A DNA stretch of 64,000 nt from Antedon mediterranea (taxonomy: Eukaryota; Echinodermata; Crinoidea; Comatulida; Antedonidae), in contig NC_092675.1 of the NCBI RefSeq assembly GCF_964355755.1, positions 20,350,912-20,414,911 on the forward strand. The letters are read 5' to 3'. Below, piece by piece: positions 382 through 12,305 of the stretch; the stretch's first letter is position 1, and each line of letters starts with the position of its first letter. The position numbers and the translations under genes were made by a program. The notes under the pieces were generated by a model. The model ran no database searches, was not told the origin of the DNA, and worked only from the letters and a program-made list of their open reading frames with translations.

Positions 382-1950
382 CTATAGTAAATCAAAGTAG
401 ACCTATGGATGACATTTTTCCGAAAGAAATTGATATAGGCTACCACGGTACTCGCATCTGGTGTAATATGCCTATTGCGACATTCAGACGGCTTTTTACT
501 ATATTGGATAAATGGAACGTGTTTTATTTATTATTATTATGATTAAACTAAAGCCTATACCAAAAAACTAAAAGCCATCCTGCTATAAAGCACTGATCAT
601 TTCTTCGTCGTCTAAGTTTGTAAAGGGGTTCTCAAGTGGTGTACATGGGTTCTCAATCAACGCAGAATTGCGACACAACGCGACATCATCACTAGATTGG
701 ATTGTCTTAAAGGGTAATTCCGGGCATTTTTTTTAAGGGGGGATTATTTTACGATGCGCGTTGTTCTTTACCGCTGACGAATAATAAATTGGGGTTATTT
801 AAAGTTTATATTTTATAAATTTTATCCCTGAAGTTACTTTAATGTTAATGCTTTTGTGAACGTCTTTCATCGTAGCCTTCGCATTTTATATTTTTACATC
901 AACCCAACCCCTTCCCCCCGCAAAACCCACGAATTTCCGATGTAACTAGCTAGTCGCAATAAATATTTGTTATTATTAATGCCGCGAAGTATCCGGTGTA
1001 ATGCACTCGAGGTATCTTCTTCTCTCGAGTCGATAGGCCTTAGGGTTAATTTTTAAAACAGCAAAGTCGACAACGAAACTCCGCTGAATACATGATATTT
1101 AGCAAGTGCCTGGGGAAATTAGGATCAATTCTGCAGTGTTTTGTTTTCTATTATTTTAGTTAATTTATAGAGAAAGACACTTTATCTCACAAAAGCCGAC
1201 TTTTCAACAGTCGCGTAAACTTAAAACGGTCAAAGAAAACTCATTTCCGTGGCCAGCAGGGTGTGTCAAACTTGTAGAATAGGCTTAGAATATTATGCTT
1301 AATGATGCGTTTTAATATTTGACTTGTACTGAATATTCGTCGTCTAATAGAAAATAATTCGATTCTCAAACAAAATCCGTACGTGAACACGGACCACCAC
1401 GACACTTAATTTTAGCGGTGGTGGTCTCTAGTCGACACTCTAACATTTTGGCAAGTAGAATTTAAAATACACTGAATCTTTGGTGCGAACAAAATAAAGA
1501 AACGGCCTCTATATTCTTGTCATCTAACTTGTCTTCATCAGTGATAGTGGTTACCTTGATTCTGCTTACCTATGTTGACGTTACTTGAATATTCATCAAG
1601 TACAACATTGGTCCTATTGTAATATAATATAATAATAATTATAACATAACAATTTATATAGCGCACTTATCCACTAAAAGTGCTCAAGACGCTATTACAA
1701 TTGAAGTGAATATGCCCAGAAAATGTAGCACGAGAAAACCGACGTCACAGTAGAACCCCACGAGGACTAAAATCTAGGCCAAAGCGATGTTTCATTGACC
1801 GTGAGAGTACGTCAGAGTGATATTATGCACTTTATATGCATTCATTATTGCCAGCGATCTAATTACTACTAAACAATAGCTAGGTACGCACTTGTCTGGC
1901 GGTATCCCTTTGTACGAATCGTTCAACGTTGGGTCGAGACGCGTGATATC
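382..1950. other. AT-rich spacer, no gene recognised
   Basis: I see no convincing coding region. The stretch around 1650-1700 (aatttatatagcgcact followed by a short spacer and aagtgctcaagacgct) resembles a motif common in dispersed invertebrate repeats. The block is absent from duplication copy 2, where the sequence jumps from the equivalent of 381 to about 12190. Confidence 0.5.
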
Positions 1951-2077
1951 AAGTTTCATCCAGGGACCAAAATGTGTAATGTGTTATTTTCCAGGCGAAG
2001 TTTACCGACGGTTACGTCGTGTACTGCGTCGACGTACGCTACACTACAGCAAAAACGAATTATGTTAATTGTTCGTT
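1951..2077 (+). repeat. 127-bp target-site duplication, left copy
   Basis: These 127 bases are identical, as far as I can read, to 8593-8719. The left copy abuts the truncated 5' end of the LINE and the right copy abuts its A-rich 3' end, as expected of a target-site duplication. The first two bases (aa) could belong to the LINE tail, so the true length is 125-127 bp. Confidence 0.85.
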
Positions 2078-2707
2078 CATTTACCAGGGCATACTAGGGA
2101 CAGATGTAATGTTGAAGCGCATAATGTATCATCATCTGGTTCACCTGGTGCATACATTAATAAAGTTTGGGAATCGGTTTTTAACTTTGAAAACCCAAAA
2201 AATAGTAATGCTAACGATAACCACTACGGGAAAAGAGCTACGGTACAATCTGATACAGAAACACATGATGAAGTGTTTAGTATTGATGGAAGTAGTGAAT
2301 CATCAGATGATGAAAATGCGCAGAAAGAAACAAGTGTGATCACTATAGAACAACACACAAACCAAAATGAGCAGGAAGATGATGACAGAGAGGAGCAGAG
2401 AGAAGAGCAGGAAGTGGACGAAAGAGAGGAGGAGGAAGTTGAAGAAGGAGAGGAACAAGAAGTACCGGGAAGAAAGTACCAGAAAGCTGAAGAAAGAGAG
2501 GAGCAGGAAGTTGGGGAAAGAGAGGAGCATGAACAGAAGAAGGTAACTGACTACTTTGAAAAAAGTATGCAAAAAAGTAAAAGTGTTAGCACAAACAAGA
2601 AAGCAGCGAGAGATCTGAAGGAACAGTCCGGAAATGAAGGCAGGACAGAAGAAAAAACAAAGAGTATTGAAAAAAGAAGTTTAAGAAAGAGAAACAAAAA
2701 CAAGTAA
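2078..2707 (+). pseudogene. LINE ORF1 C-terminal fragment
   Basis: The open frame nominally starts at 2069 inside the 127-bp repeat, but LINE sequence begins at 2078. The first residues, LPGHTRDRCN, look like the second half of a CCHC zinc knuckle, the usual C-terminal nucleic-acid-binding motif of ORF1 proteins in this group; the upstream half is lost by 5' truncation. The rest is extremely charged: about 2380-2560 encodes E/R/Q-rich repeats such as REEQEVDEREEEE, and the tail is K/R-rich. It ends at a TAA 65 bp before ORF2. Expected role: RNA chaperone of the LINE ribonucleoprotein. It has no start codon of its own. Confidence 0.75.
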
Positions 2708-4538
2708 TTTAATCTTAATAATATGTATTCTAAATATTGTAATTTCCCTAGGAAGCTCTTTACTCTAATCTTATGAATTTACATTGTATAACACTAAACG
2801 TTAGAGGAGCTAGAAATATAAATAAGCAACATAAGCTATTCCAATGGGTAAAAGATCAAAAAGCGGATATATGTCTGCTTCAGGAAACCCATCTAACAAA
2901 TGAGATTATTAATAAATCAAACTTTGTTTGGGAAGGTGAAGCGATCCATAGTATAGGTAATTCACATAGTAGAGGAGTGTCGATACTATTACGAAAAGGT
3001 CTTGAATGCAAAATTGTTAAAAAGTTAACTGATATTGATGGAAGATATATATTTCTTAATTTAATGATAAATGAAAAGGAATTGGACATTATAAATATTT
3101 ATGCTCCTAATGAAAGCAAAAATAGAAGTGCATTCTTTAGGACCATACACAAATGTTACAATGACTTTGATGGAGGGAAGGGTAATTCTATCATTCTAGG
3201 TGGAGATCTGAATTGCATCATGAATAGTGACATTGACCAAAAAGGTAGCGCAAATAGGTCTGATAAATCTGTTTTTACGATTAAAAACCTAATGAAAAAT
3301 TTAAATTTAAATGATATTTGGAGATCCAAAAACATGAATAAGCGACAATTTACGTGGCGTAAGAGATTTAACAACATTTTCCGTAGGCTGGATTACTGGT
3401 TAATATCAGAAGATCTCTTTTCAAATGGAGATGTTTTAGCCTGTGACATTCGTCCAGCCATTCTCACAGATCACCAGGCGGTATCAATTAAAATAGATTT
3501 GCATGAAAAAATACGCGGTCCTGGTTTATGGATGTTCAACAATAGCTTTCTGAAAGATGAAACATTTACAAAATTAGTAATTAAAATAATTGATGTTTCA
3601 ATACTAAAAAATAATAGAGAACCTGTAAGTGCAAGTTTGTTATGGGAGCTTGTAAAAACAAAAATAAAAGAATTTTCAATTGCATACGGAAAACAAAAAA
3701 ATTAAAACCAGAATAAAAAGAAAGAAAAATTACAAAAACAAATAAAAAACTTAAATGAAACAATTATGAATACTCAAAATTGTGATATAACCATTGAAAA
3801 TAAAATTGAAAACAAAAAAATAGAGCTTGAAAACATTTATAATGTAGAAGCAAAAGGCGCGCAAATTAGGTCCAGAGTAAAATGGATAGAGGAAGGCGAG
3901 CGGAATACAAAATACTTTCTTGGGTTAGAAAGATCCAAAAGTAAAAAGAAACACATAAAAAGTTTAATTACTAAAGATGGGAGCTTAGCAACGAGCCCAA
4001 TTGATATTTTAAAGGAACAAATACAACATTTCGAAGGTTTATACGCAAAAAATGTTATAAACCCTGGAAAAATTAATAAATATCTTTGTAATTCTATTAT
4101 AAACAAGCTTTCAGAAATAGAAAAAGAAAATTGTGAAGGTTACGTCACTATTGATGAATGTAAAAAGGCCATTTCAATGATGGAAAAAAATAAAACACCT
4201 GGATCGGATGGTCTAAGTGTTGAATTTTATGTGTTCTTTTGGATAATATTAAACATTTAATTTGCGATGCGTTAAATGAAAGTTATAATTCTCAAGAATT
4301 ATCCTTTTCGCAAAAACGAGGTGTAATCACCCTTTTGTTCAAGGATGGAGAAAGAGAAAATTTGAATAATTGGCGTCCCATTACCCTCTTAAACACCGAT
4401 TACAAAATTCTTGCACATGTATTAAGTAACAGACTTAAAATGGTTATTAAATCAATAGTAAGTTCAGACCAAAAAGGTTATATAAAAGGCCGTTTCGCTG
4501 GTGAAAACATTCGGTTAATAGAAGACCTGCTTTATTAT

Positions 4539-6237
4539 ACAGTTTTTTCATTTTCATTTCTTTATTCGAATTCATAAAATAACACAACATAAAAAAAATA
4601 CAAAGAATGAATTCAGGGTAACACAAAAAAGTAACCAAAGGTCAAACTTATTTCCATTGTGGCCCTTAAGGATAAAAACACCATAAGAATAAACATTTAC
4701 AATAAACAATAACACATGTAGTAACAATATAAATATAAATTATAATCTTTCAAGCATAACCTCTTTGAGATGTTTCCTGATATTTCTTTTGAATTGATTG
4801 ATGGTTTCTGAACACTGTATCAATTTTGGCAGGTGATTCCATGACGTTATTGCCGTGTTAACAAAGGTTGTTTGGGAGTGGTTACCTATATATGGTCTAT
4901 AAATTGATTGAGTTGCAAATCTAGTATTGTACTGGTGAATTACATTTGCTCTACTAATACCATCATTCATAAACGTAGGGCTTAATCCATTAATAATACG
5001 ATACATGTGACAAAGTTTTATCTGTTTAACTCTTAAGTCTACTGGGAGCCAATTCAGTTTGTTTAATTCATTAGCCCCAATGTGATCTCTTGGTTCAAGA
5101 CCAAGAATACATCTGACCGTCTTATTTTGTGCAGTTTGCAATTTAACTTTTAATGTTTTTTTTAATCCAGAGTACCACACGCTACAAGCATAATCATAAA
5201 GGCATAACACCAAACTATTTGCTAGTAACTTAAGATCTCTGAAAGTTAAGTACTTTCTATTTCTATATAAAAATTTTACCCTTGAGTTTACTTTCTTTAT
5301 AACTGATTTACCTATATAATCTCCAGTTAGATTGTTATCGAGTTCAAGTCCTAGATAACTTACTGTAGGTTTGTTTGTGATTATATAATCATTGCATGTA
5401 ACTTTCAATTCTTGTTGATTTCTGAGTTTACGTTTAGATCCAAATAGAATTGAATACGTTTTGCCTAGATGCAATGACAATCTATTATCTAATAACCAAG
5501 AATTAATAGATTTTAATTCTTTTGACAATACATTTTGTATATTGGCGACACTTTTATCAGATACAACTATAGCAGAATCATCGGCATAAAGGAGCAGTTT
5601 ACAACTCAATGCAGATTCCATATCATTCACATACATTAAGAACAACAGTGGGCCCAATATTGACCCCTGAGGGACCCCACATGTTATTTTTTTCCACGTT
5701 GAAAGAGTACCACAATTATCAACTACCTGCCATCTATCTGTTAAATATGATTTAAACCAACCTATTACTGTTTGGGACAATCCTAATGCTCTCATTTTGC
5801 CTAGTAAAATCTGATGGTCTACAGTATCGAAAGCCTTTTGTAGGTCTAAGACTATCATACCTGTTAAATTACCTTTATCCCAATTCTTTTTAATATGGTC
5901 AGTTAGGTGAATTAAACAAAGATCTGTCGAAAAATTTGCTCGGAACCCACATTGGAAATCATAGATAAGTGATTTAGAATTAAGGTATTCCATCAATTGG
6001 TCATGTACTAGTCTTTCAACAACTTTAGAAAAAGCCGAGAGTATAGACACCGGACGATAGTTACCTACCACCGTTTTACTACCCTTTTTGTGAATTGGGA
6101 TGACTCTCGCTAATTTCCATTCTTTGGGTACAATACCGGATGTGAAGGACAACTTAATAATATGAGTTAATGGTTTTGCTATTGCAGAAGCCCCATCTTT
6201 GAAGAATTTGGCTGGTAGAGTATCTATTCCGGCCAAG
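4539..6237 (-). mobile_element. Nested, 5'-truncated CR1/L2-like LINE
   Basis: A 1,699-bp insertion in the opposite orientation to its host LINE. Host codons run to 4538 and resume at 6238, which fixes the boundaries. On the minus strand it starts inside the RT domain (the conserved AGIDTLPAKFF), runs through the RT C-terminus, has about 200 bp of 3' UTR and ends near 4539 in an AT-rich tail (rich in tgaaa). I see no clear target-site duplication, which is common in the CR1/L2 group. Clade assignment rests on the RT style (GNYRPVSILS, FRANFSTDLC, GVPQGSILGPLLF, LLYADDSAI) and is approximate; another Jockey-group clade is possible. Confidence 0.85.
4740..6237 (-). pseudogene. CR1/L2-like reverse transcriptase, N-terminally truncated
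   Basis: About 498 uninterrupted LINE codons. Motifs in order: GNYRPVSILSAFSKVVERLV, FQCGFRANFSTD, IVLDLQKAFDTVDH (motif A), GVPQGSILGPLLFLMYVNDM (motif B), LLYADDSAIVV (motif C, catalytic aspartates present) and, near the C-terminus, HQYNTRFATQSIY with SWNHLPKLI, typical of this LINE group. The APE endonuclease is missing through 5' truncation, so it cannot be autonomous. The open frame continues by chance to 6518 in antisense host-LINE sequence, so the first 93 or so residues of a naive prediction are not LINE protein. The RT itself has no stop or frameshift. Confidence 0.88.
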
Positions 6238-8592
6238 TGTAATGATATCGAAGGGGCAATAATTACCGTAGATTTTAAGAAGGCTTTTGACTCTATTAGT
6301 AGAGATTTTATGTTCAATGTTCTAGAAAAGTTTAACTTTGGAATGTTCTTTTGTAACTGGGTAAAAGTATTATACAATAACGTTGAATGTGTCACAGTTA
6401 ACAATGGTTGGGTTTCAAACAATTTTAAAATGGAAAGAGGTATTAGACAAGGTTGTCCTCTATCTGCTCTGTTATTCATTTTAGTGGTTGAAGTAATGGC
6501 ATCTAGAATAAGAAACAAAGATGACTATAAGGGTATTAAACTTCCAAATAATGAAAATAACATAGAAGCTAGAATAAGCCAATTAGCCGATGATACTGTT
6601 TTGTATGTTGGTAATGACAAAAGTATTAAGTCAGCAGTCAGTGTAATTGAACGTTTTTGTGAAGTATCTGGAATGACACTAAATAAAAAAAAAACCAATG
6701 CTTTTTGGATTGGTAAATGGAAGAACAGAATAGATAGACCTTTAGAATTAAGTTGGGTAAAACACCCGATCAAAATTTTAGGCATATATGTAGGATATAA
6801 TACAGAAGAATGTACCAGAAAAAACTGGGATGTTAAATTAATAGAGCTAGAAAAGACTTTAAAACAATGGAATGCTAGAAATCTCTCAATTTTTGGTAGA
6901 ATAATAATCCTGAAAATTCTTGCACTATCTAAATTAACATATGCCGCAAATATCACTGATGTTCCAAAATATGTATATACACAAGTTACAAATCTAATAT
7001 ATAATTTTATTTGGAACAATAAAAGGGAAAAGATAAAAAGAAAAACTCTAATTGGTGATGTTGAGATGGGAGGCATTAAAATGCCTAATTTTACTCTTCA
7101 TGTTAACGCACTCATGTGTGGCTGGTTAAAAAGAATTATGAATGATGATGGTGCTAAATGGAAAAATATTCCAATGTATTATATTAAAAAAATATGTGAT
7201 GTTAATGTTTTACTTAATATGTCATGTTATAACATTATTGATGTTAATTCTGATAAAATTCCACTGTTTTACAAAAATATGATAAAAGCCTACATAAATT
7301 ATAACAGAATCTCTAAAAAAAAACCTGAAACTTATAACGATATAATGAATGAGCAACTGTGGTGAAACCACTACGTTAAACTAAAAAAAAAATCGCTTTT
7401 CTACAAGCATTGGATTGACAGTGGCATTATCAGTATTAAAGACATTGTTAATAAGAACACTTTTTTAACATCAAACGAAATACTGGTGAAACTACAATGT
7501 AAAACAAACTGGTTAAATGAGTATTTGTGCATTATTAAGGCAATACCAATTCAATGGAAACGTATTATTAAGGAGGTAGATATTTTCAATTGTGATGATA
7601 ATGATGAATTAGTTGGGACCAAGTATGAGATTAATACTACCAAACTAATATACTCATGGTTTGTGAAAGAATATTTCATTATTCCAATGTCACAACTAAA
7701 ATGGGAAGAGTACTTCAATGATAACAACATTGATTGGAAAACTTCTTGGTTACGGAAAGTATGTAAAATGAAAGATAAGAAACTAGCACAATTCAATTAT
7801 AAGATGTTACATAGAATACTGCCTACCAACAAACGGCTGTATCAGTGGAAAGTTAAGGAAACACAAACGTGTGACAAATGTGGAGAAATTGAAAATGAAA
7901 ATCATTTGTTTTTTAGTTGTAGATTTATTCAGAAATATTGGAGGAAAATGCTTAGTATCTTTGTAAGTTTAAATCACAATAATATATCATTTAAACAATT
8001 AATACTAGGAACGGGAGATAAGCTAATAGATTATATTTACACTTTTGCAGCATTTACTATTTATAGAATAAAAATGTTATCTGCACTAAATAAGCCAGTG
8101 GGTAAATCTTTATGGAATTCATTTAAAAGCAATATGTTATATAACATTGAATGTGAAACATATAACAATAAAGAAACAAGTATAGAAAAATGGGTAGCTT
8201 TAAGAAATAAGATTATGATAATATAATTTCTAATTTGATACGATTAACCGAAAAAGAATTACAGTGATACGGGTTACTGGTGGTACTGAGTTATTATTGT
8301 TTTTTTTATCATGTATATAAATATATTGTATAATCCGGGTTGTAAAATGAAAACAAACAAATGAAAATGTGTGAACTATTTTAAAACGGGATAGATGACA
8401 ATGATGATCCTGTCAAGTGTATAACAAAATATACGAAAATTAATGAAAAAAGGAGTAATACATTCATATATGTAAAAATGTTACTTATGAACTGTAACGA
8501 CATTTACAAGTTAAATAATACGATTTTATGTAATATGAGATAATATGAATGTGAATAAAAGTGGTGTTTGCGCCACAAAAGAGAGAAAAAAA

Positions 8593-8719
8593 AAGTTTCA
8601 TCCAGGGACCAAAATGTGTAATGTGTTATTTTCCAGGCGAAGTTTACCGACGGTTACGTCGTGTACTGCGTCGACGTACGCTACACTACAGCAAAAACGA
8701 ATTATGTTAATTGTTCGTT
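8593..8719 (+). repeat. 127-bp target-site duplication, right copy
   Basis: Identical to 1951-2077. It follows directly on the A-rich LINE end (gagagaaaaaaa). After 8719 the sequence (tgttcaccaatttttt) is the original right flank; the left copy is instead followed by LINE sequence. Confidence 0.85.
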
Positions 8720-9662
8720 TGTTCACCAATTTTTTAATTTACAAGTAACCTTCTGTACCGTGGGGCACCTAAAATAAATTTTTCATCCATTACTAAACAA
8801 AAAAACATGCCATTTTCGTTTAGCCAACATTATAGCTATAGTTATTACATTTTCAATATCCTGTATGTCATGAATTTCTCACCACTCGGAAGTCCAGATG
8901 GTACGCATGCATACACCTGGGAGGAATAAACTTTTTTCCCCGACTGAAAAAGGTCTACGCTTGCGTTTTTTAAGCCTCTAGGCCTGATGTTTCCAAAGTA
9001 TAAAATGCAATTTTTTGAAGACCTGCAGCTCTAGTTTTAAACATTTTCTTAGCTCAGCCCCAACAACAAAGCTGGTCATATTTCGAAGTACATTTTCCGG
9101 GACCTAACATCTCTATTTTTCAAACATTTCTTAGCTCAGTCACAACCCATGATAGGGACTTATATATTTTTTTTCATGTTTTAAAGTATAATAAGTCCAA
9201 TTTCCGGGACCTCCAACTCTATTTTTCAAAATTTTCTTTGAACTTTTATTTTTTAAATTGAAAAATATGGATTGAAACCGTCATCGCGCATCGTTTTTTT
9301 GCACGCAGTATTTTATTTATGCATTATTAAAAATGGAAAAAATGGCTACCCTAAATCTGATTAAAAAGACCTCAAATGACGCTAGAACGCGTTGCTTCCG
9401 GGGGCTTCGCCCCCTCAGGGGTCCCAAGTTGTAGAAGTCAAATTCCTGGAGATTTTGTCGTGAAAGTTAAATTTGGTTTTGCGGTGCATGGCGCCTTGCT
9501 GTAACGCGCGAACAACATTACAATATGAAAACACATTTTTAAAAGTACAATAAAAATACATTTAATCATCACTATTCCATACAGTATTTACATATATAAT
9601 AATTTAAATTTTATCTCTTTACACCTTTATATTATAGTATTGCTGTTTTTGTCCTTAATTTT
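8720..9662. repeat. Degenerate short tandem repeats, no gene
   Basis: Between about 8990 and 9240 there are three decayed copies of a unit of roughly 90-100 bp carrying 'ttccgggacct', 'ctctatttttcaaa' and 'ttcttagctcag'. At about 9400-9420 there is a GC hairpin (gggggcttcgccccc) inside an otherwise AT-rich block. The rest shows nothing I can name. The block lies just downstream of the minus-strand hAT-like gene and may hold that element's 3' end, but I could not find a matching terminal inverted repeat. Confidence 0.45.
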
Positions 9663-11529
9663 TTATTTTTTAAGACTTTCGTTATACATAGATGTTGCTT
9701 TACGAGCATTTGCTAGTACATCTTTAGTAGGTTTAAAGGCATGACATTGTAAATCTGTGAATAAATTGATCTTGCATGACATAAGGTTAACTAAAGTAGA
9801 GTGGGAGAGACTTGCTCTGAATTGTGTCTTAATATGTTTCATAACACTAAAGGCACGTTCCACATCACAGTTAGAGTGTGGTAAAATAAGTAGCAGTTTC
9901 ATCAACTTAGAAAGCTGAGAAAATCGTCCATTGCCAGTTGATACATCAGTTATAGACGAAACTTTGTGCCAGTATTCATCTATTGGCAATTTAGCATAGT
10001 CTTTGATTAAATTGTTAAGGTTGGTAGCCTGATAGTCCACAACTTCACTTTCTAAATTACAAAGATCCTCATCATTAAAGTAGTTCCTAAACCTGCCTGC
10101 TAAGATTCCAGCAACATCGGTTGTCAATGCATCTTGCTCAGAAGGGCAAACAACCTTCAAGTTTTTCATAACTTCACAGTTAAGAGGAAATTTCTCCATA
10201 ATCTTACAAAAACTCTTAGTGAGATAGCGTCTGACATCATCATAAAATTTATCAATGGTACGGTTCGGCAAATCACTTATCTCCTCAGTCATTAATAGCA
10301 ATTTTGCGTCTCTTCCAATACCTAAATTTACATTGTCCCATTGATTGTCAATACACAAAACATCTAAGTCTTTCATTGATGTTACACATCTAATATGCTG
10401 AGGTTTCACTAGTCTCATAGCAATGTTGCGAAGCAATTCTTCCACACAGTCTGAGAGTTTATACAAGATGCTTTCTGTTGAAACACTAGGTTAAACTTAT
10501 CAAAAACTGGTACTACAGACATCAAAAAATGGGAATAAACTTTCATCATGGGGTTGTTTAATCTTTCTGATATAGATCTGCTCTTTTGATTGTCAGATTT
10601 TGAGTTGAAATATGATTGGAAGGCATCCCATTGTGAAATTAAGTGCTTCAGCGACTTTCCCAGTGATAACCATCTTGTGGGGCAATGTTTTTTAACTCTT
10701 TCTTCAGCTACAACACAGAAATCCTGGAATTCTTTTAATTCATGACAACGCTTACTTGATTTATCAAAGTAGTAGTAGATATCAATGATTAGGTTCTCTG
10801 GGTTCAAGTCCAGCTCTTTGTATGCGGTCTTACAACAAATGTTCACCAAATGATTTGGGCAACCAACACTGTATATTAAGGGTGCTCTCTGTTTAATTCT
10901 TGATAGAACTGAATCCCTCTTACCTGTAAGAATACAGAATAGAATTGATTTATATAATTAGTTTAGTGCAGAACAGTCAATATCAACTCTGCTTCGGCAT
11001 TCTTTACTATAAGTTGTTTTATTGATTATCATTAATAATTTTATGTTAAATCAATTTTTGTGTTCAATCAATTTATGTTCAATCTATTTCATGTGGCATT
11101 GATAACGACTCTCAACAACAAATAACCAATCAAGTTTTGATATATGATGCAATCGAATTGTAAAGAGTAAACTTTTGACTTTGGAACAAACAATACTGGG
11201 TAATGATACAGTAACTATAGCTATTTTGTACCTACCTATCATCACATTACAGTTGTCGGATGAAAAGGCTGCGACATTCTCCCACTGAATACCATGCTTC
11301 TCCACCAATGTTTCATTTACACAATCAAAGATCTTTGCACCAGTTCCAACATTGCAAACAGGCATGTCCAGAAAACCAACACAAACCTTCCCTGATGACT
11401 CACTAAAGTATCGAACCATTATTGCACACTCCTTGTCGCATACAATGTCATTGGACTCGTCTATCATAAGAGTAAAAGGCTGACGTTGGTCTTTGATGGC
11501 TGAAAGCATTGACTTAGAGGACTCTGGTT
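9663..11529 (-). pseudogene. hAT-superfamily transposase-like gene, 5'-incomplete, with intron
   Basis: Two exons read on the minus strand. The upstream exon (11529-11236) encodes PFTLMIDESNDIVCDKECAI and AAFSSDNCNVMIG, typical of the RNase-H-like core of hAT-derived proteins. The exon starts after a ttttag acceptor and ends at a GT donor (gtaggtac); the intron spans 11235-10924 and ends in ttcttacag. The downstream exon (10923-9663) continues in phase: GCPNHLVNIC, HCPTRWLSLGKSLKHLI, then the C-terminal dimerisation (hATC) segment ILPHSNCDVERAFSVMKHIK, ending at a TAA at 9663. One frameshift lies near 10465, between VFQQKAS and YKLSDCVEELLRN. The N-terminal exon or exons are not recognised. 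It may be an autonomous hAT remnant or a domesticated gene; the frameshift argues for a pseudogene unless it is a base-call error. Confidence 0.8.
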
Positions 11530-11799
11530 CTAAAAATATTAAGAAAATAAAAAAGAAACAAAATGAATGTTTAAATAATGTAATATGATGAATGCTTGAA
11601 ACAGCTATTAGATTGAATGTTTTTTTTTTTTTAGTATATACCATGCTTTACAAAATGAAATACATGCTATCTTGTCAGGATTCAATATTTCAACAGGAAT
11701 ATTACTACAATACATAATTGACAAAACCAAATATATGCACAGACAGCACTTATTTTAATTTAATAATAAAGTTATTAATTAATTAATTTATTAATAATA

Positions 11800-11930
11800 A
11801 AGCCCCTGGACCCCCACCGGGGGCCCTTGGCGGCCCCTGGCCCTCAGCCTAGTGATGCTCGCTTCGCTCGCATAGCCCCCTCGTCGGGGAATGTAGCCCC
11901 CGCGTCGGGAAGATCCTGGCGCCACCCCTG
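11800..11930 (-). repeat. GC-rich terminus resembling a hAT end
   Basis: Read on the minus strand from 11930 it begins CAGGGGTGGCGCCAGG, then GC-rich sequence with gcgagcgaagcgagc. This resembles hAT-type termini and sits upstream (5') of the hAT-like gene, where a 5' terminus would be expected. A second partial copy of the inner GC-rich part lies at about 12054-12130 (cccttggcggccccctgg, gctcgcttcgctcgc). I found no partner end on the far side of the gene. Confidence 0.45.
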
Positions 11931-12305
11931 CTGAGTTGGCCTCATCATGAAAGCGTTAAGTTCTGGTGTCCATCGTTCAACTAGCCCAAGCCACAACAGA
12001 GAGTCTTACATCAGTCTTTAGAACGTCAAATAACGCAAATTTTTCCAGGCTCTTCGGCCCCTGGACCCTGACTGGGGACCCTTGGCGGCCCCCTGGCCCC
12101 CAGCCATTGTTGCTCGCTTCGCTCGCACCCCCCCCCCCCCATTATAAATGCTGCATACGGGCCTGACGTGTGTTAACACGACGCTCAGACGACTGAACTA
12201 ACTGATCATTTTGGTTTTAGCAAGGTTAATAGGATATTTATGACGTAATGATCAATTACGTAATACACGTATAAATAGACTATTATCAGCTTTTCAATCA
12301 TGTAC

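What the first reader, a model, noticed from the sequence alone, without database searches (positions are those of the whole stretch)
1951..8719. A Tx1/L1-like LINE flanked by an identical 127-bp direct repeat
Both repeat copies abut the element ends exactly (truncated ORF1 on one side, A-rich 3' end on the other), so the repeat looks like a target-site duplication. Most LINEs duplicate fewer than about 20 bp. Rotifer R9 elements are known for a duplication of about 126 bp, but those use a restriction-like endonuclease; this element has an APE endonuclease. A long staggered cut by an APE-type LINE, or a preferred target, would be new to me.
Basis: partly seen in the sequence, partly recalled or inferred. 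Interest (0 to 1): 0.75.

Follow-up and report, generated by a model that had tools for sequence, protein, structure and literature searches.

The report
LINE with occasional long target duplications
The 127-base repeat around this jumping gene is a real duplication of its landing site, but other copies of the same element mostly duplicate about 14 bases and only now and then one hundred or more, so it is the long tail of a familiar insertion process and not a new fixed 127-base cut.

Summary
The 127-mer belongs to a multicopy hAT transposon; the nine other copies read carry it once. A tandem junction of it was not found in the genome, its uninterrupted right junction 394 times. So it is a true target-site duplication (TSD). 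Of 80 LINE copies examined, 56 gave a TSD: 48 at 8-17 bp (mode 14), three at 25-41, five longer (61/150, 101, 127, 248, 359); 8 had none found. The 101 and 359 bp stretches match only their two flanks. Two more copies hit the same hAT family with 12 and 17 bp TSDs. A fixed 127-bp stagger or preferred target is refuted; recurrent, variable long TSDs (5 of 56) are supported. Long and short classes begin at similar A-rich first-nick sites, so the second-strand break differs. Long TSDs are already reported for human L1 in cultured cells (PMC5223499, PMC2912911; passages). An ordinary LINE with a well-resolved long tail.

The parts
1784..1950 (.). left part of the hAT transposon that was hit; about 440 bp further left, with the terminal repeat, present in L004, is missing here
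   Evidence: 94.6-98.8% identity to the stretch left of the 127-mer in L002-L010
1951..2077 (+). target-site duplication, copy 1 (127 bp)
   Evidence: identical to 8593-8719; single in the nine other hAT copies read
2078..8592 (+). 5'-truncated L1-group LINE, interrupted by another LINE at about 4539-6239
   Evidence: 97-100% identity of its pieces to most of the listed genomic copies
2078..2704 (+). C-terminal part of ORF1
   Evidence: no Pfam match here; the upstream part with two CCHC-like motifs is read in a full-length copy, L044
2773..3702 (+). APE-type endonuclease at the ORF2 start
   Evidence: Pfam PF03372 E 2.9e-13; human L1 ORF2p/endonuclease E about 1e-22
4539..6239 (-). second, 5'-truncated LINE nested in the first (not part of the main element)
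   Evidence: RVT_1 E 2.6e-35 on the - strand; LINE sequence runs on across this point in other copies
6240..7362 (+). reverse transcriptase part of ORF2
   Evidence: RVT_1 E 1.6e-23; human L1 ORF2p E 1.5e-38, R2 group about 1e-11
7486..8223 (+). C-terminal part of ORF2 with zf-RVT
   Evidence: PF13966 E 1.3e-8
8227..8592 (+). 3' UTR and A-rich tail
   Evidence: 97-100% identity in the 40 scored places of 387 candidates; runs of A at the junctions
8593..8719 (+). target-site duplication, copy 2 (127 bp)
8720..12165 (.). rest of the hit hAT transposon: hAT dimerisation domain on the - strand at 9663-10466, two neighbouring - strand ORFs without a Pfam match (10415-11644), right terminal repeat 12155-12165
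   Evidence: PF05699 E 1e-6; 96-98% identity to L002-L010 over 8593-9415 (L006 only to 9190), and 91-99% over parts of 11803-12167 in 8 of 9 (not L006); ends CAGGCCCGTAT / ATACGGGCCTG

Best explanation
The LINE inserted by ordinary target-primed reverse transcription into one copy of an abundant hAT transposon. Its APE endonuclease nicked the bottom strand at a TT/G site (TT/A is the family's commonest), the A-rich tail of its RNA was primed there, and the copy was cut short at its 5' end. The top strand was broken 127 bp downstream and not the usual 8-17 bp, and fill-in of this long stagger made the 127-bp duplication. Five of 56 TSD-bearing insertions of this family ended in such a way, with no fixed length. 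Shown: the duplication, the single-copy state in paralogous empty sites, the similar first nick, the spread of lengths. Inferred: the TPRT steps themselves, and that the distal break is a late or unrelated nick used when the normal nearby second cut fails.
For: Empty sites: nine other hAT copies carry the 127-mer once, with the window's left neighbour (8 of 9 exactly, L009 one base off) and right neighbour (9 of 9). Tandem junction of the 127-mer: 0 in the genome with up to 3 mismatches; rep-to-right junction: 394 with up to 3 mismatches. Other copies: TSDs of 61/150, 101/102, 248/250 and 359 bp lie against both LINE ends, within about 4 nt; the 359 and 101 bp stretches match only two places each, the two flanks. 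First-nick context: the TSD starts with A in 48 of 49 scripted short-to-medium copies and in all five long ones; the base before it is T in 35, C in 12, G in 2 of 49, and T in four of the five long ones. It cannot be A by construction, since the match would then run into the tail. Mismatched-flank control: 10 bp or more shared at both junctions in 0.2% of 3660 false pairs, against 45 of 61 true pairs. Precedent: human L1 TSDs over 100 bp in up to 10% of HeLa events, with a distal nick proposed (PMC5223499, passages).
Against: No allelic empty site is available, so each duplication is inferred from position and, for the window, from paralogous hAT copies. Two of the five long TSDs (127, 248) lie in multicopy repeats. 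One long case (L110) has copies of unequal length (61 and 150) and needs a later indel. Eight copies have no TSD that I could find. Human germline data that I saw do not show a long class: 51 of 51 de novo Alu insertions had TSDs of 8-18 nt (PMC12633430, passages).
Confidence: 0.85

Rival explanations
1. A fixed, R9-like stagger of about 127 bp, or a preferred target, is built into this LINE.
For: The window copy alone; R9 makes 126 bp (PMC6895275, passage).
Against: 48 of 56 TSDs are 8-17 bp; long ones range from 61 to 359; two other insertions into the same hAT family have 12 and 17 bp TSDs.
Confidence: 0.01
2. The 127-mer was already a tandem repeat in this hAT copy and the LINE landed on the boundary.
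For: 3 of 9 hAT copies carry a second, partial unit upstream that includes the first 65 bp of the repeat.
Against: No full tandem copy in the nine loci and no tandem junction found in the genome; it would need an insertion exactly at the boundary, here and in the cases L070 and L032 whose stretches match only at their two flanks.
Confidence: 0.03
3. Ectopic recombination between two LINE copies that sat at different points of two hAT copies joined a left and a right flank that overlap by 127 bp.
For: Both LINE and hAT are multicopy, and other copies of the LINE do lie in this hAT family.
Against: Needs two nearby insertions in the same orientation; cannot explain the long TSDs in sequence found only at the two flanks.
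Confidence: 0.04
4. A sub-case of the best explanation: long TSDs arise when insertion happens at replication forks, the second break being an Okazaki-fragment end or gap.
For: Lengths of 61-359 bp overlap Okazaki-fragment sizes (recalled, not tested); the first nick is similar in both classes.
Against: No direct evidence; only five cases; no strand or timing data.
Confidence: 0.1

Closest known systems
Human L1 insertions with large TSDs (HeLa and NER-deficient cells; PMC5223499, PMC2912911, PMC4245944, passages)
   Same: APE endonuclease, usual TSD about 15 bp, a minority of TSDs over 100 bp, very long ones reported for 5'-truncated copies, TT/A-type first nick.
   Different: There, de novo reporter insertions in cultured cells; here, natural copies in a 354-Mb genome of an organism that was not named to me. 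In NER-deficient cells most TSDs are large; here 5 of 56 exceed 50 bp, and an XPA_C domain is present in the genome.
Tx1/L1-group LINEs
   Same: APE endonuclease, L1-like RT, zf-RVT, CCHC-like motifs in ORF1, A-rich tail.
   Different: No target specificity seen; Tx1 against L1 clade not resolved here.
Rotifer R9 (126-bp TSD)
   Same: Length of the duplication in one copy.
   Different: R9 has a restriction-like endonuclease and a constant target in 28S rDNA (recalled; the 126 bp is from PMC6895275).

Membership tests
L1-group (L1/Tx1) LINE | APE-type endonuclease at the ORF2 N-terminus | tested here: met
   PF03372, and human L1 ORF2p/endonuclease as best solved relatives
L1-group (L1/Tx1) LINE | L1-like reverse transcriptase | tested here: met
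   L1 ORF2p E 1.5e-38, R2 group about 1e-11; only solved structures were compared, no RT tree
L1-group (L1/Tx1) LINE | A-rich tail, TSD peak near 13-16 bp, TT/A-type nick | tested here: met
   mode 14 (13 of 55 scripted TSDs); T|A in 35 of 49
Tx1 clade | ORF1 with CCHC knuckles (recalled as typical) | tested here: inconclusive
   two motifs visible in L044 ORF1, Pfam zinc-knuckle scores below cut-off
Tx1 clade | grouping with Tx1 in an RT tree | not tested
Tx1 clade (target-specific members) | insertion at one target | tested here: not met
   flanks and nick contexts of the copies differ (read by eye)
R9 | restriction-like endonuclease, 28S rDNA target, constant 126-bp TSD | tested here: not met
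   APE endonuclease; target here is a hAT element; TSDs 8-359 bp

The most novel reading that the evidence does not exclude
This LINE, or its host, has a distinct second mode of second-strand cleavage that makes TSDs of about 60-360 bp in roughly one natural insertion in ten, restricted to 5'-truncated copies, and surveys that look only for TSDs up to 30 or 49 bp have missed such a mode in natural LINE insertions.
Probability: 0.3. Interest if true: 0.6.

Novelty: new member of a known kind. Interest (0 to 1): 0.38.

Why it matters
How a LINE cuts the second strand is an open question. This family, with hundreds of candidate copies (387 at first look, 40 scored), the scored ones 97-100% alike, and a clear minority of long TSDs, two of them in DNA found only at the two flanks, is a natural data set for it. 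Two published surveys that I read in passages collected only TSDs of 5-30 bp (PMC2912911) and 10-49 bp (PMC13295347), so a long class would have been invisible to them.

Tried and rejected
A first ungapped search for TSDs suggested that 127 bp was a lone outlier; a gapped comparison with longer upstream flanks overturned that and found L070, L092, L032 and L110. L050 looked like a 112-bp TSD but lies in a 64-bp minisatellite and was dropped. In one search I first looked for hAT ends with two words taken from L003; these are not the terminal repeat, which one search showed. NER loss as a cause was checked only by looking for the XPA_C domain, which is present; other NER genes were not tested. 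Tx1 against L1 clade was not resolved. Literature searches (one search was too broad to be useful) gave no report, in the listings and passages that I saw, of the frequency of TSDs over 50 bp in natural APE-LINE copies; the library lacks most subscription papers. [quoted passage not shown] PMC10584689 held none of the terms sought.

Rows of the count, 80 copies with the window: 56 with a TSD; 8 with none found (L023, L059, L082, L084, L098, L113, L124, L148; 6 kb upstream compared for all but L148, which had about 830 bp; L113 may share 5 bp); 5 duplicates of counted loci (L067, L068, L069, L109 of L063; L086 of L082); 11 undecided (L050, L053, L062, L112 and, with an end not located, L136, L140, L142, L144, L146, L150, L152). 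Weak calls kept: L029 and L034 (8 bp each), L063 (10 bp, with 11 extra nt). L114 (12 bp) was read, as the script missed it because the flank was cut; L056 (17 bp, 5' inversion) comes. Against all 64 decided insertions the long class is 5 of 64. The control used 61 pairs: the window, L032, L072, four undecided copies and the duplicates were left out, and L070 and L092 score 0 in it, because it looks only near the junctions. Listed but not examined for a TSD: L014, L015, the C3:16.92-16.93 Mb pair, C7:3584618, C9:17053284 and other places. Copies were taken by similarity to the window copy or to L064, not at random.

Full report
The repeat. 1951-2077 and 8593-8719 are identical over 127 bp and abut the two ends of a + strand LINE: truncated ORF1 at 2078 and an A-rich tail ending at 8592. 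One T at the 5' junction and two A's at the 3' junction are ambiguous, so the duplication is 124-127 bp.

What was hit. The 127-mer is part of a multicopy element: 910 first-look candidates, of which 40 were scored, all 100% identical. Ten of the 40 were fetched; one is the window, and the other nine, L002-L010, carry the 127-mer exactly once, with the window's right neighbour in 9 of 9 and its left neighbour in 8 of 9 (L009 differs at one base). 3 of the 9 have an extra partial unit with its first 65 bp upstream. The element is a hAT transposon: a hAT dimerisation domain lies on the - strand at 9663-10466, and its ends read CAGGCCCGTAT / ATACGGGCCTG. The window holds a copy from 1784 to 12165 with a 2.4-kb interior absent from the other copies read, its left end missing. 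The junction that a tandem pair of 127-mers would make was not found in the genome with up to 3 mismatches, while the uninterrupted right junction was found 394 times. The repeat therefore most likely arose with the insertion.

The LINE. It has an APE endonuclease close to that of human L1, an L1-like RT and a zf-RVT. Full-length copies start about 920 bp further upstream, and their ORF1, read in L044, has two CCHC-like motifs (Pfam scores below cut-off). It belongs to the L1 group; Tx1 against L1 was not tested. A second LINE on the - strand is nested in it at about 4539-6239.

Other copies. I examined 80 copies, window included; how they were chosen and which rows were dropped is told under Tried and rejected. 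56 gave a TSD: 48 of 8-17 bp, mode 14; 25, 28 and 41 bp once each; and five long ones: L110 61 bp (150 in the other copy, so a later indel), L032 101, window 127, L092 248, L070 359. Eight had none that I could find. In a control that paired flanks of different copies, a shared stretch of 10 bp or more at both junctions occurred in 0.2% of 3660 pairs, against 45 of 61 true pairs. The L070 and L032 stretches match only two places each in the genome, the two flanks. The L092 stretch is a repeat (48 candidates, 40 scored), but its two flanking copies are 98% alike, against at most 95% to any of the other 38 scored places. L032 first seemed to lack a TSD because another insert lies within that LINE; its true 5' junction is 3.3 kb upstream.

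Mechanism. The first nick looks alike in the short and long classes. In the 49 copies whose junction was scripted the TSD starts with A in 48, and the base before it is T in 35, C in 12 and G in 2; that base cannot be A by construction, because the match would then run into the A tail, so only part of the T excess is informative. L070, L092, L032 and L110 have T|A, the window C|A. The second break shows no motif by eye. So TPRT seems to start normally and only the position of the second break varies. All five long cases are 5'-truncated; the full-length copies with a TSD (L043, L044, L118, L120, L138) have 15, 14, 15, 25 and 16 bp, and a sixth, L124, has none; too few for a test. Two more copies lie in the same hAT family, L102 with 12 bp and L116 with 17 bp, so the target does not set the length.

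What is known. In passages that I read, PMC5223499 says that L1 TSDs over 100 bp never exceeded 10% of events in HeLa cells, that NER-deficient cells give a median of 1495 bp, and proposes that a more distal unrelated nick is used; PMC2912911 recalls that 5'-truncated L1 in HeLa had extremely long TSDs, and itself collected only 5-30 bp; PMC4245944 gives an L1-clade peak of 13-15 bp; PMC6895275 gives R9 126 bp and APE LINEs 10-20 bp; [quoted passage not shown] On the other side, polymorphic human insertions peak at 15 bp with a standard deviation of 7 (PMC3158055) and 51 of 51 de novo Alu insertions in human sperm had TSDs of 8-18 nt (PMC12633430), so a long class is not evident in those germline data. 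The present family fits the HeLa picture. The XPA_C domain is present in this genome, so loss of XPA is not the cause; other NER genes were not tested.

Verdict. What remains of interest is the minority of long TSDs (5 of 56) in natural copies.

Noticed in passing
window 4539-6239: A 5'-truncated LINE on the - strand is nested in the LINE; compared by eye with the uninterrupted sequence in L070, its insertion duplicated no bases that I can see.
   Followed up: partly
L063, L067, L068, L069, L109: Five LINE copies share the same truncation point and junction sequence: probably one insertion carried along by some larger repeat that has since multiplied.
   Followed up: no
C10:20290500-20310500 (L102, L103, L116, L117): Two copies of this LINE in opposite orientation lie within 20 kb, both inside copies of the same hAT family.
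   Followed up: partly
window 2399-2533: A 24-bp tandem repeat of 5.6 units, rich in Glu codons, inside ORF1.
   Followed up: no
L002, L003, L009: The left arm of the hAT element holds a unit that is repeated, in part, in 3 of 9 copies (roughly 330 bp apart in L003).
   Followed up: no
L050: A copy of the LINE inserted into a 64-bp minisatellite array.
   Followed up: yes
C9 about 16.98-17.05 and 17.63-17.72 Mb (L014, L015 and places): Pairs of LINE copies with the same 3' flank (L014, L015) or the same spacing suggest a segmental duplication on this contig.
   Followed up: no
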